A DNA stretch of 64,000 bases. Origin: a virus. Within the stretch, counting starts at the first letter, position 1; each line of letters starts with the position of its first letter. Location of the stretch: the IMG/VR virus record IMGVR_UViG_3300046516_001541, positions 16,083-80,082 of that record. One strand, 5' to 3'. The position numbers and the translations under genes are program-made. The notes under the pieces are model-generated. The model saw only the letters and a list, made by a program, of their open reading frames with translations, was not told the DNA's origin and did no database searches. Below are positions 51,692 to 55,861 of the stretch, piece by piece.

Positions 51692-51727
51692 GATGAAAGA
51701 CTCCGGGAGAATTGCTTGATGAATTTG

Positions 51728-51756
51728 AATGTACGCACATTTGCGTAGCTTGTCAA
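51728..51756 (-). promoter_or_regulatory. Leftward promoter of the 47.5-51.7 kb block
   Basis: Minus strand: TTGACA (51756-51751), 17 bp, TACATT (51733-51728). An inverted repeat lies between the boxes (next entry). Its -35 overlaps the -35 of the divergent repressor promoter, so the two compete. Confidence 0.7.
51732..51747. promoter_or_regulatory. Palindromic operator between divergent promoters
   Basis: TACGCA-CATT-TGCGTA, perfect 6-bp arms. It covers the spacer and part of the -10 of the leftward promoter and lies just upstream of the -35 of the rightward one. The adjacent HTH protein (51787-52029) is the natural candidate to bind it. Confidence 0.6.
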
Positions 51757-51778
51757 GCAATCCGTGGATGTGTAGAAT
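51750..51778 (+). promoter_or_regulatory. Rightward promoter of the HTH gene, nearly leaderless
   Basis: TTGTCA (51750-51755), 17 bp, TAGAAT (51773-51778). The ATG at 51787 is 8 nt after the -10, so the transcript would begin at or within about two bases of the start codon, like lambda cI from PRM. Confidence 0.65.
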
Positions 51779-51786
51779 CCTGCTGC

Positions 51787-52029
51787 ATGAACGATCCAAT
51801 TGCAATGCTCAAAGAGCGCCTGACCAGCCCCGATCTCACGCAGGCTGATTTGGCCACGCGAATCGGTATCAGTCCTCAGTTTTTGTCGGAAATTCTCAAA
51901 GGAAAGAGGAACCCCAGCAAAACCGTTCTGGATTTCCTGGGTCTTGAGAAGCACGTCACGTATCTGCCGAGAGTCTCGGCTGTAGCGACCGGCGCCGATC
52001 GTCGATCTCGAAATCGCCGCCGCGCGTGA
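51787..52029 (+). CDS. Small Cro/CI-like repressor
   Basis: The 80-residue protein begins MNDPIAMLKE and has an XRE-type HTH (QADLATRIGISPQFLSEILKG), then a basic end. Its size fits a Cro or small CI-like repressor. It probably binds the palindrome at 51732-51747 and controls the leftward block and its own nearly leaderless promoter. No integrase is in the window, so lysogeny is not proven. Confidence 0.72.
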   Translation: MNDPIAMLKERLTSPDLTQADLATRIGISPQFLSEILKGKRNPSKTVLDFLGLEKHVTYLPRVSAVATGADRRSRNRRRA

Positions 52030-52110: not shown

Positions 52111-53934
52111 ATGAAACCGTCACTCGGGAAATTCGAAAACGGCCGCAATGCCGTGATCGATATCAAAACACTCGTTGTCTCGCGCATGCTGGTCCAGGCG
52201 AATTCGGGAGCAGGCAAGTCGTATCTGATCCGGCGATTACTCGAAGTGACGTTCGGGCTCATCCAGCAGATCGTCATTGATCGCGAAGGCGAATTTGCGT
52301 CGTTGCGGGAAAAATTCGACTACGTCATCGCGGCACCTCATGGCGGCGATGCGCTGGCGCACCCGAAAACGGCCAAGCTCCTCGCGATCCGCCTCCTTGA
52401 GACCGGTGTCAGCGCCATCATTGATATTTCCGAGCTGAAGAAGCACGAGCAGCAGACGTTCGTGCGGATCTTTTTCGATGCCATGGTGAATGCGCCGAAA
52501 ATCTTGTGGCATCCCGTCATGGTCGTGCTGGACGAGGCGCACCTCTTCTGTCCTGAAAAGGGCAGCGCCGAGGCGTCCGCCGCCGTGATCGACATGGCCA
52601 GCCTCGGGCGCAAGCGCGGATTCTGTCTGGTCGCTGCTACTCAGCGATTGTCGAAATTCAACAAAGACGTTGCCGCAGAGCTGCTCAACAAGCTCATCGG
52701 GCGCACATCACTGGTGCTCGACGTGAAGCGCGCAGCAGAAGAATTGGGCATGACTCCGAAAGAAGCGATTCCGATTTTGCGCAATCAGGAACCTGGGCGC
52801 TTCTTCTGCTACGGCCCAGCGCTGTCCCCTGCCGTGGAACTGGTCACCATTGGTCCAGTTGTCACCACTCATCCGAAACCGGGCCAGCGGCGCGCACACG
52901 CGCCCCCCAAGCCGACCAAAGCGATTCGGGACATCCTTCCCAAGCTGGCGGATCTGCCGAAGGAAGCCGAGCAGGAGGCACGCTCGATCGAGGAACTGCG
53001 ACAGGAGCTTGCGAACGTTCGGCGCGAGCTCGGCCAGGCGAAAAAGGAGGATGGCCCGAAGATCACCAAAGCGGAATTGGCGGCGGAATATCGCCGCGGG
53101 CGCGATGAAGCAGGAACGGTCACCGCGTCCGCGCTGGTCACTCGGCTGCGGACCGCCTTGGAGAACGTCATGAAGTTTGTCGTCCAAATCAACGCAATCG
53201 ATTTCTCGAAGGCTACCGATTTGGATCCTGGCGAATTGGCTAAGGCCATGAAATCGGCGGTTGATCAGGCCATGAAGTTGGTCGATGCCAAACTAGCCGG
53301 TCGTCAGAAAACGCTCGAATCCCTGCAGCGGGACGGCGGGCGGCTCATTGCTTCCGTACAGAAACTGCTTGCCGATGACAAGGTTGAAATCAAACTCGAC
53401 GTAAAGAAACAAAAGCCGTTCGAAGTTTCACCGACTCCGCCACCGAAAGCGCCACGGGCTGTACGGGAAGCGGTCCCGGGCAATGGCTCATTGCCCAAAG
53501 GCGAGGCAGCCGTTCTCGCCGCCTGCATCATGTATCCGAATGGTGTCAGCCGGGAACAGTTGACCGTGCTGACGGCTTACAAGCGCAGCTCACGCGATGC
53601 CTATATTCAGCGTCTGCGCGAACGTGGATACGTTGAGACGGGCGATCTAATTCGCGCTACTGAGTCCGGCGCTGCGGCACTTCCGGATGCACGACCGTTG
53701 CCAGTAGGCGAGGAGTTGCGCGATTATTGGCTGACAAAGTTGCCAGAAGGTGAGCGCAAAATTCTCACCGTACTGATCGAGGCGCATCCAGAACCGATGG
53801 ACCGAACGGCGTTAGATCAGGCGGGCTATCAGCGCTCCTCTCGAGATGCCTATCTGCAAAGACTGCGTGCGAAGGAACTTGTGACCGAACCCGCGCGCGG
53901 TCAGGTGAAAGCCAGCGACAATTTGTTTACTTGA
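52111..53934 (+). CDS. HerA/FtsK-type ATPase
   Basis: The 607-residue protein has a Walker A at 33-37 (NSGAGKSYL) and a DEAH-type Walker B at 141-144 (VVLDEAHLF), the HerA/DUF87 pattern. After a helical, charged middle the C-terminus carries two copies of a winged-helix-like module (KRSSRDAYIQRLRERGYV and QRSSRDAYLQRLRAKEL, about residues 475-605). Such ATPases translocate on DNA, often with a nuclease, but none is adjacent. An 81-bp gap separates it from the repressor gene. Confidence 0.78.
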   Translation: MKPSLGKFENGRNAVIDIKTLVVSRMLVQANSGAGKSYLIRRLLEVTFGLIQQIVIDREGEFASLREKFDYVIAAPHGGDALAHPKTAKLLAIRLLETGVSAIIDISELKKHEQQTFVRIFFDAMVNAPKILWHPVMVVLDEAHLFCPEKGSAEASAAVIDMASLGRKRGFCLVAATQRLSKFNKDVAAELLNKLIGRTSLVLDVKRAAEELGMTPKEAIPILRNQEPGRFFCYGPALSPAVELVTIGPVVTTHPKPGQRRAHAPPKPTKAIRDILPKLADLPKEAEQEARSIEELRQELANVRRELGQAKKEDGPKITKAELAAEYRRGRDEAGTVTASALVTRLRTALENVMKFVVQINAIDFSKATDLDPGELAKAMKSAVDQAMKLVDAKLAGRQKTLESLQRDGGRLIASVQKLLADDKVEIKLDVKKQKPFEVSPTPPPKAPRAVREAVPGNGSLPKGEAAVLAACIMYPNGVSREQLTVLTAYKRSSRDAYIQRLRERGYVETGDLIRATESGAAALPDARPLPVGEELRDYWLTKLPEGERKILTVLIEAHPEPMDRTALDQAGYQRSSRDAYLQRLRAKELVTEPARGQVKASDNLFT

Positions 53935-53945
53935 GCACCAGATTC

Positions 53946-54164
53946 ATGAAATTCAAAGTGCGGATTAAGGCGATCATTGATCAACAGCAACTCGTTTCGC
54001 TGGTTCGATCAGCGCCTATTACTGCGACAGCGATCCCAATTGCCGAATTTCATTGCGGACCTTTTCAATGCGACACAATCGAGGATGTCTGGGCGATCGT
54101 AACTGAAACGGTAGCGCAGGAACGCCAGTCCGCGTACGAGAAATTGAAGGATTTCGCTCCATGA
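53946..54164 (+). CDS. Small phage protein, 72 aa
   Basis: Begins MKFKVRIKAI, mixed alpha/beta, with FHCGPFQCDTIED in the middle. ATG 53946 is preferred; TTG 53931 overlaps the ATPase stop and is an alternative. It overlaps the trigger-factor-like gene by ATGA. Function unknown; its place between ATPase and chaperone suggests cotranscription. Confidence 0.55.
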   Translation: MKFKVRIKAIIDQQQLVSLVRSAPITATAIPIAEFHCGPFQCDTIEDVWAIVTETVAQERQSAYEKLKDFAP

Positions 54165-55861
54165 CTAACGAACTGCGCCGCACGATCGACATCGAGTTAC
54201 CTGACTCTCAGATCGAGAGGGCTCTAAATCAAAAATTCCCTTTTCGGCATGGAAAACTGCCTGCATTCTCCTATCTCCGCAAGAAATATGGCGATGACTT
54301 TCTGACTGAAATCCTTCAGGCATTGTTGACAGAGAGGATCAACACGGAAATCGCCGCTCTCAAAATGGACATCGCCAGTGGCATAGAAGTTATGTCGCTG
54401 TGGAATACGTGGGATCAGCCATTGCGGTATCGGTATCGCGTGCAGTTCGAGGTATTTCCCGAATTCACGCTGCAGGGCCTGGATGCCTTGACGATGCCGG
54501 CTATTGCGCCTGTTCGGATCGACGATGCCCAGGTCGATGCATTCATCGAGATTATGCGACGCGAGCGATCGCCATGGCGGCATGTGAACCGCTGCGCTCT
54601 CCCGGGCGACCGCGTCGTAATCAATTTCAATGGGACCATTGATGGCGAGACGTTTCCTGGCGGCCGAGGTCAGGCGGCGAAAATCGAATTAGGCGCGGGT
54701 GGCATGTTGCCGGCATTTGAGCATGCATTGATGGCTGCGATGCCAGATGAGGATTTGTCTTTTCCGATTACTTTCCCCGCAGATTATCAAACATCTTTTT
54801 TGGCCGGGAAGACGGCGCAATTCGAGGTGCATATTGTTGACATTCAGGCGATTGATCTGTTGCCGCTCGACGATGAGTTTGCTAAGCGCTTCGGCGTTAC
54901 AGAGGGCATTGCGGCAATGCGCGAAGGAATGCGCAAAAATCTTGAGCGACAGCATCAGGAGCAGGATCAGCGCGATATCAGCAATTCATTGCTCACTCAG
55001 CTGGCGGCGGCGAACCCTATCCCGTTGCCAGACTCGTTAGTCGATCAACACATCCGGGCTATTCAGGCTGAGATGGCGCCGCGCGCCGGTCATCCGACAG
55101 AGCAAATCTATATTGACGCGGGCATGATCGCGACGGCCCGCCATCGAACCCATCTGGGAATTTTAGTACGCGAACTGATCAAGACTGAACACATCGAGGT
55201 TGATGCCAGTCAAATCGATGTGCGCATGGAAAGCATGGCGGCGGCAGCAACGGGCGCTCCTGCCGAGCTCATCCGGCATAATCCCGCGATAATTCAGCAG
55301 GTCCGTGCTGAGTTATTGCAAGAGCGCGTCATTAACTGGTTGATTTTCCGCGCCAAGCAGAATACTGACACGGTCGCGTCACGATCATCCATTAGAAAGG
55401 ATCGCACCATGCACAATCCATTTCATCGGCATCATCATTCTCATTCCCACGAACCGCCTTTTGCCGCTATTATCACCGACGCTTTCCTGCACGTCCGGTA
55501 TCACCGGCATACACACCATGGAGCACACACAGTGAGCACAGTTACACTCAAAGGCACGACTCCGATCGCGCGCACTGACGGCAGCGCGCTGGCTCTGACC
55601 GACATCGCTTCCATCGACGTTTTCGACGATGTTGGCGATGGCAATGGCCCACAGAACATTGGCAGCGTTCCCAACCCTGGCGCGACATTCGAATTCACGA
55701 CCGGCGTTCTGACCGCCGGCGTGACGCACAACTTCACAGTCGTGGTCAATGACACGACCGGTCACAAGTCCGCCCCGTCCAATGCGATTCCGATTCCGGT
55801 TCCCGCGACCCTTGCGGCGCCGAATGCTGTGGCCGATCTCGTCGGCACGCTGAATGCCTGA
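54161..55861 (+). CDS. Phage trigger-factor-like chaperone, reading into His-rich Ig-like ORF
   Basis: Residues 1-416 fit trigger factor. A ribosome-binding-type N-terminal domain (FRHGKLP at 28-34, cf. the family's GFRxGKxP) is followed by RYRVQFEVFPEFTLQGLDAL, an FKBP-type peptidyl-prolyl isomerase domain (149-228, GDRVVINFNGTIDGE, FEHALMAAMPDEDL) and a long helical C-terminal domain. The N-terminus is about 16 residues shorter than in bacterial homologues. There is no stop before residue 417, and the frame continues into a His-rich and Ig-like part (residues 417-566) that has its own start (next entry). Trigger factor is normally a host ribosome-associated chaperone; a phage copy is unusual. 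Confidence 0.82.
   Translation: MTNELRRTIDIELPDSQIERALNQKFPFRHGKLPAFSYLRKKYGDDFLTEILQALLTERINTEIAALKMDIASGIEVMSLWNTWDQPLRYRYRVQFEVFPEFTLQGLDALTMPAIAPVRIDDAQVDAFIEIMRRERSPWRHVNRCALPGDRVVINFNGTIDGETFPGGRGQAAKIELGAGGMLPAFEHALMAAMPDEDLSFPITFPADYQTSFLAGKTAQFEVHIVDIQAIDLLPLDDEFAKRFGVTEGIAAMREGMRKNLERQHQEQDQRDISNSLLTQLAAANPIPLPDSLVDQHIRAIQAEMAPRAGHPTEQIYIDAGMIATARHRTHLGILVRELIKTEHIEVDASQIDVRMESMAAAATGAPAELIRHNPAIIQQVRAELLQERVINWLIFRAKQNTDTVASRSSIRKDRTMHNPFHRHHHSHSHEPPFAAIITDAFLHVRYHRHTHHGAHTVSTVTLKGTTPIARTDGSALALTDIASIDVFDDVGDGNGPQNIGSVPNPGATFEFTTGVLTAGVTHNFTVVVNDTTGHKSAPSNAIPIPVPATLAAPNAVADLVGTLNA
55409..55861 (+). CDS. His-rich Ig-like protein, internal start
   Basis: ATG 55409 is in frame with the trigger-factor-like gene and preceded by AAGGA at a good distance, so a separate 150-residue product is likely. 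It begins MHNPFHRHHHSHSHEPP, has a second His-rich patch (YHRHTHHGAHT) and then an Ig/Fn3-type beta domain. An inner GTG at 55533, with GGAG upstream, could give the beta domain alone. The His patches may bind metal. Function unknown. Confidence 0.6.
   Translation: MHNPFHRHHHSHSHEPPFAAIITDAFLHVRYHRHTHHGAHTVSTVTLKGTTPIARTDGSALALTDIASIDVFDDVGDGNGPQNIGSVPNPGATFEFTTGVLTAGVTHNFTVVVNDTTGHKSAPSNAIPIPVPATLAAPNAVADLVGTLNA

What the first reader, a model, noticed from the sequence alone, without database searches (positions are those of the whole stretch)
54161..55408. Phage-encoded trigger factor
Residues 1-416 carry the three-part architecture of trigger factor: ribosome-binding-type N-terminal domain, FKBP-type isomerase domain, and a helical SurA-like chaperone domain. 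Trigger factor is normally a host housekeeping protein, and phage-borne copies seem rare to me. The N-terminal motif is FRHGK rather than FRKGK, so ribosome docking may be altered. It sits in a short operon with a HerA-like ATPase and a small unknown protein, not beside structural genes.
Basis: partly seen in the sequence, partly recalled or inferred. Interest (0 to 1): 0.8.

Follow-up and report, generated by a model that had tools for sequence, protein, structure and literature searches.

The report
Phage trigger factor with eroded ribosome-docking motif
A tailed phage carries its own copy of trigger factor, the bacterial chaperone that normally sits on the ribosome, but the part that clips onto the ribosome is shortened here and lost in its nearest relative, suggesting that the phage uses it as a free folding helper.

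Summary
The trigger factor (TF) is real and phage-borne. Pfam finds all three domains (Trigger_N, FKBP_C, Trigger_C, each over its cut-off), the predicted fold matches E. coli TF, and a collinear relative (L002) carries a 53%-identical TF in the same slot between a HerA-like ATPase gene and the primase.

Two details change. First, no stop lies at 55408: the frame runs to 55861 (566 aa). Residues 417-566 are a His-rich downstream protein that is a separate gene in the relative, so a TF fusion and a free downstream protein are both possible. Second, the H in FRHGK is not the lesion: that position is the variable x of GFRxGxxP. The lesion is about ten residues missing before the motif and loss of its leading G; the relative lacks F-R altogether. 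All 117 comparison host-type TFs keep GFRxG[KR]xP. Isomerase-site residues are intact in both phage copies.

Best explanation: a captured TF kept as an off-ribosome or weakly docking chaperone/isomerase for phage proteins, in line with published dosage toxicity of ribosome-binding TF. Most other "phage" TF hits examined are host DNA, but a full TF (L180) and an N-domain-only protein (L158) also lie among phage genes. New variant of a known kind.

The parts
51712..52029 (+). Cro/C1-type HTH regulator, possible first gene of the cluster; conserved in the relative
   Evidence: HTH_3 E=8e-10; 69% identical match in the relative. Joint transcription is inferred.
52111..53934 (+). HerA-like (DUF87) P-loop ATPase with C-terminal repeats; 607 aa
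   Evidence: DUF87 E=8e-9; in the relative the C-terminal part is well conserved while the ATPase part is very different
53931..54164 (+). 77-aa ORF without family match, overlapping its neighbours by 4 bases; not present in the relative, where the HerA-like gene abuts TF directly
54161..55381 (+). Trigger factor proper, codons 1-407
   Evidence: Pfam, PDB sequence match to E. coli TF E=2e-50, AlphaFold2 + Foldseek, 53% identity to the relative's TF
54239..54262 (+). Residues 27-34 PFRHGKLP: altered ribosome-docking signature (canonical GFRxGxxP)
   Evidence: alignment to E. coli TF and to 61 host TFs
54599..54835 (+). FKBP-type prolyl isomerase domain, residues 147-225; F156, F165, F186, Y209, F221 correspond to E. 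coli F168, F177, F198, Y221, F233
54908..55345 (+). Trigger_C chaperone domain, residues 250-395
55382..55408 (+). 27-base linker read in frame here; intergenic with a TF stop codon in the relative, same length
55394..55401 (+). Shine-Dalgarno-like AGAAAGGA before the ATG at 55409, conserved in the relative
55409..55861 (+). His-rich protein, Ig-like by eye only (150 aa), in frame with TF here; separate 178-aa gene in the relative, 70% identical over the aligned part
   Evidence: no Pfam, PHROG or phage-collection match

Best explanation
This is a trigger factor captured by a phage lineage from a bacterium and kept under selection as a chaperone and prolyl isomerase for phage proteins, acting mainly off the ribosome or with weakened docking. 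Shown: three TF domains, intact isomerase-site residues, purifying selection on the phage pair, syntenic placement behind a HerA-like ATPase gene and before a His-rich protein gene, and erosion of the ribosome-docking motif. Inferred: the motif eroded because an extra ribosome-binding TF is toxic by dosage, and the clients are phage proteins, the adjacent His-rich protein being the first candidate because it is the next gene and, in this genome, fused in frame.
For: Domains over curated cut-offs; E. coli TF best solved match and best fold match. Relative TF 53% identical, dN 0.41 with synonymous sites saturated; identity highest in the isomerase domain (0.60) and lowest in the N domain (0.48). 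Isomerase residues kept in both phage copies. 117 of 117 host-type TFs keep GFRxG[KR]xP, neither phage copy does. Published: nearly all bacteria keep one ribosome-binding TF, extra copies lack the N-terminal motif, and overproduced full TF is harmful unless the N domain is removed (PMC11559001); FRK to AAA compromises ribosome binding in vivo (PMC11725819).
Against: The N domain is still predicted to fold as helix-loop-helix and this copy keeps F28, R29, G31, K32 and P34, so weak docking is quite possible. No client, expression or binding data exist. The link to the His-rich protein rests on adjacency and on a fusion seen in one contig. Only two sequences define this lineage. The motif loss could also be simple relaxation.
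Confidence: 0.5

Rival explanations
1. Translation takeover: the phage TF competes with host TF or SRP at the exit tunnel, or soaks up host nascent chains, to slow host protein synthesis.
For: Excess ribosome-binding TF lowers protein synthesis (PMC11559001). F28-R29 and the helix-loop-helix remain here. Another phage keeps the docking domain alone (L158).
Against: The docking motif is exactly the part that is damaged here and lost in the relative; selection for ribosome competition should preserve it.
Confidence: 0.15
2. Dedicated chaperone of the adjacent His-rich protein, possibly as a fused TF-client polypeptide in this phage.
For: Adjacent in both phages; continuous reading frame here.
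Against: The conserved Shine-Dalgarno and start codon let the downstream gene be made alone. The fusion may be one recent substitution or an assembly error. The downstream protein is not found in other phages.
Confidence: 0.2
3. Decaying passenger gene of no present function.
For: N domain eroding, lower identity than the core genes (53% against 72-75% for sheath, primase and helicase).
Against: Open frame, intact isomerase residues, dN 0.41 with saturated synonymous change, same slot in two diverged phages.
Confidence: 0.1
4. Host DNA mis-binned or mis-assembled into a viral contig.
For: This is what the inspected phage-collection TF hits and many viral-collection TF hits are.
Against: No ClpP gene on either contig; the same gene order in an independent contig; phage genes on both sides; about 30% identity to any host TF found.
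Confidence: 0.02

Closest known systems
Bacterial trigger factor (Tig; E. coli PDB 1W26, 2VRH)
   Same: Three domains in the same order, isomerase-site residues, predicted overall fold
   Different: About 30% identity, docking signature altered, helix 1 shortened, C-terminal tail trimmed, phage operon instead of the tig-clpP-clpX context
N-terminally defective TF paralogues of bacteria such as Myxococcus xanthus MXAN_6153, MXAN_1178, MXAN_1713 (PMC11559001)
   Same: Extra TF homologue without a GxRxG docking motif, isomerase and C domains retained
   Different: On a phage; the N domain is mostly present rather than absent or replaced. No direct sequence comparison with these paralogues was made here.
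phrog_26774 (PHROG family without assigned function)
   Same: Matches residues 27-401 at E=1.5e-50
   Different: The model also rings in 12 of 14 control cellular genomes, so it is a TF-like model and its own members' origin was not checked
Phage-encoded chaperones (HSP60, HSP10, ClpA/ClpX, MoxR-vWA systems; PMC7824862)
   Same: Phage-borne folding factors
   Different: That review of 224 jumbo phages does not mention FKBP or prolyl isomerases, and its two uses of 'trigger' are unrelated

Membership tests
Trigger factor, homologous family | Trigger_N + FKBP_C + Trigger_C in order | tested here: met
   all above gathering cut-offs
Trigger factor, homologous family | Overall TF fold | tested here: met
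   AlphaFold2 model, then Foldseek 2vrh E=1.6e-25, 1w26 E=2.4e-25; the alignment used host TFs, so the fold is partly implied by homology
Trigger factor, homologous family | FKBP-site residues F168, F177, F198, Y221, F233 (E. coli numbering) | tested here: met
   choice of residues from my own knowledge, conservation measured here
Canonical ribosome-docking trigger factor | GFRxGxxP signature (or degenerate GxRxG) | tested here: not met
   PFRHGKLP here, F-R absent in the relative; criterion from PMC11559001 and PMC11725819
Canonical ribosome-docking trigger factor | Binds L23 / 70S at the exit tunnel | not testable with these tools
   needs binding assay
Canonical ribosome-docking trigger factor | Prolyl isomerase and holdase activity | not testable with these tools
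   needs enzyme and aggregation assays
N-terminally defective TF paralogues | TF homologue with isomerase and C domains but no docking motif | tested here: met
N-terminally defective TF paralogues | Groups with the known defective paralogues in a tree | not tested
   those sequences were not in the set; the tree put the phage pair on its own long stem outside 61 TFs with the motif

The most novel reading that the evidence does not exclude
Different phage lineages have captured trigger factor and kept different parts of it: a full protein with a ruined ribosome clip (this phage and L002), a full protein with an intact clip in a gene cluster with a phage-type sigma factor and exonuclease (L180), the ribosome-docking domain alone beside a portal gene (L158), and a TF-like isomerase domain beside ClpP (L021-L023). 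The exit-tunnel chaperone would then be a recurrent target of phages, used both as folding aid and as ribosome competitor.
Probability: 0.3. Interest if true: 0.75.

Novelty: new variant of a known kind. Interest (0 to 1): 0.55.

Why it matters
Trigger factor is treated as a single-copy host housekeeping chaperone. A phage copy with a broken docking motif is a natural test of the proposed dosage constraint on ribosome-binding TF, and offers a starting point for asking what TF does off the ribosome. A survey of Southern Ocean viruses found no viral TF analogue (PMC8407431), so a verified case matters, as does the warning that most TF hits inspected in phage databases are host DNA.

Tried and rejected
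Single-sequence scan of viral contigs for the TF found nothing because the pattern search needs close relatives; the primase scan found the relative instead. A3 scan of the genome collection found no prophage relative. Hits L007-L011, L019 and most of L143-L182 were considered as phage TFs; those with legible context look like host flanks (clpP on the record in 17 of 36, tRNA-Leu(UAG) upstream in several, many at contig ends), others are truncated at contig ends and stay undecided. L182 was read as host tig by context. Phage-collection hits: six records inspected and rejected as bacterial, the other 23 not inspected. YN00 dN/dS failed and NG86 dS for TF was saturated, so no TF omega is given. 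Structure of the His-rich part is of low confidence (pLDDT under 50 for residues 416-470), so its Ig-like reading is not shown.

Full report
Observation. The ORF at 54161 encodes a protein whose residues 1-407 are a trigger factor: Trigger_N 28-131, FKBP_C 147-225 and Trigger_C 250-395, all over Pfam cut-offs; phmmer against solved structures gives E. coli TF at E=2e-50 over residues 27-401. An AlphaFold2 model built on 47 window and locus sequences is above 90 pLDDT over most of the TF part, with the N domain at 77-93, and Foldseek returns E. coli TF first (2vrh, 1w26). The alignment contained host TFs, so the fold match is not fully independent of sequence homology.

Boundary. There is no stop at 55408. 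The frame runs to 55861. In the relative L002 the TF ends with a stop, followed after the same spacing by a Shine-Dalgarno-like TTAGAAAGGA and the ATG of a His-rich protein. In the window the same 27-base spacer is read in frame, so a 566-aa TF fusion is encoded, while the conserved Shine-Dalgarno and ATG at 55409 would still allow the downstream protein to be made alone. Whether the fusion is biological or a consensus error in one metagenomic contig cannot be told here.

Phage origin. The 80,082-base record carries portal, head protease, major head protein, tail sheath, baseplate, tail-fibre and endolysin genes and a primase and helicase. A second viral contig is collinear with it in reverse orientation from tail genes through HTH, HerA-like ATPase, TF, His-rich protein, primase and helicase, at mostly 65-80% protein identity in core genes. 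TF is 53% identical between them, HerA-like 38%, primase 73%, sheath 72%. The nearest named phage by primase, Bordetella phage vB_BbrM_PHB04 (about 50%), has no TF annotated in the stretch read, and its genome is not among the TF hits.

Selection. NG86 gives dN 0.41 for the TF pair with synonymous sites saturated; the His-rich pair gives dN 0.22, dS 3.1, and the primase pair dN 0.20, dS 2.5. This is purifying selection, though no omega can be quoted for TF. Identity by domain: N 0.48, isomerase 0.60, C 0.52.

Docking motif. All 117 comparison TFs carry GFRxG[KR]xP; these were collected by homology from bacterial genomes and from host flanks on viral contigs, mostly Pseudomonadota, and my extraction looked for a motif of this shape, though it allowed other forms and none lacked it. 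The window has PFRHGKLP and L002 has no F-R core; both have about ten fewer residues than bacterial TFs ahead of the conserved proline. The exact placement of the gap is alignment-dependent. The isomerase-site residues F156, F165, F186, Y209 and F221 are kept in both phage copies.

Origin. In a quick ML tree the two phage TFs form a fully supported pair on a stem of 1.56 changes per column, outside 61 TFs. The tree was midpoint-rooted and the set is almost wholly Pseudomonadota, so the donor is unresolved. The best matches are gammaproteobacterial, but that scan was pattern-limited.

How rare. tblastn against 50,697 phage records gave 29 hits. I inspected six records by neighbouring genes: Acinetobacter MD-2021a shows tig-clpP-clpX and four of the other five show ClpP, ClpX, Lon or other chromosomal housekeeping genes, the fifth having chromosomal-type neighbours as well. 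The remaining 23 records were not inspected. Among viral contigs, motif scans and alignment scans gave about 40 stretches; 17 of 36 records tested carry ClpP and several have tRNA-Leu(UAG) just upstream of tig, so they look like provirus boundaries; others end near TF and stay undecided. The scans use exact degenerate patterns and miss divergent members, so no frequency is claimed.

Other phage forms. L180 encodes a complete TF with GFRKGKVP intact between a phage-type sigma factor, exonuclease and nucleotide-kinase genes. L158 encodes a 162-aa protein matching Trigger_N only, with GFRPGKVP, close to a portal gene. L021-L023 encode an FKBP-type protein beside a ClpP-like protease; the FKBP part matches the TF-like PHROG but could be a generic FKBP.

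Mechanism. Wan et al. (PMC11559001) report that almost all bacteria have one TF with the docking motif, that additional homologues usually lack it, and that overproduced N-terminally complete TF is harmful while N-domain-deleted TF is not. A phage adds a second TF to a host that already has one. Loss of docking in two diverged phage copies, with the isomerase site preserved, fits that constraint. I therefore favour an off-ribosome or weakly docking chaperone/isomerase for phage proteins (0.5). L180 with an intact motif shows that the constraint, if it applies to phages, is not absolute. Client identity is a guess from adjacency.

Literature. Searches of the held open-access library found no report of a phage-encoded TF; one paper states none was detectable among Southern Ocean viral proteins. 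The library lacks most subscription journals and preprints, so novelty of the report is provisional.

Noticed in passing
L180:5553-6821 (IMGVR_UViG_3300032163_000830): Complete 422-aa trigger factor with intact GFRKGKVP among phage sigma factor, exonuclease and nucleotide-metabolism genes: a second, separate phage TF lineage.
   Followed up: partly
L158:4358-4843 minus strand (IMGVR_UViG_3300050821_021923): 162-aa protein that matches only the TF ribosome-docking domain, near a phage portal gene; a possible ribosome-site competitor.
   Followed up: partly
L021:7788-8913, L022:6612-7737, L023:6804-7964: Three related phage contigs pair a TF-like FKBP domain protein with a ClpP-like protease, echoing the bacterial tig-clpP order.
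   Followed up: partly
L153, L159, L165, L169, L172, L173: tRNA-Leu(UAG) lies just upstream of host tig on these viral contigs, suggesting that a provirus attachment site there brings host tig into viral collections.
   Followed up: partly
L187-L191 and L005: Several records deposited as phages are pieces of bacterial chromosome (tig with clpP, clpX, lon or other housekeeping genes).
   Followed up: yes
window 52111-53934 and L002:15038-16909: HerA-like ATPase genes in the two phages share well-conserved C-terminal repeats but very different ATPase parts, as if the N-terminal module was exchanged.
   Followed up: no
window 55409-55861: His-rich, possibly Ig-like protein without any family match, 70% identical to its counterpart in L002.
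   Followed up: partly
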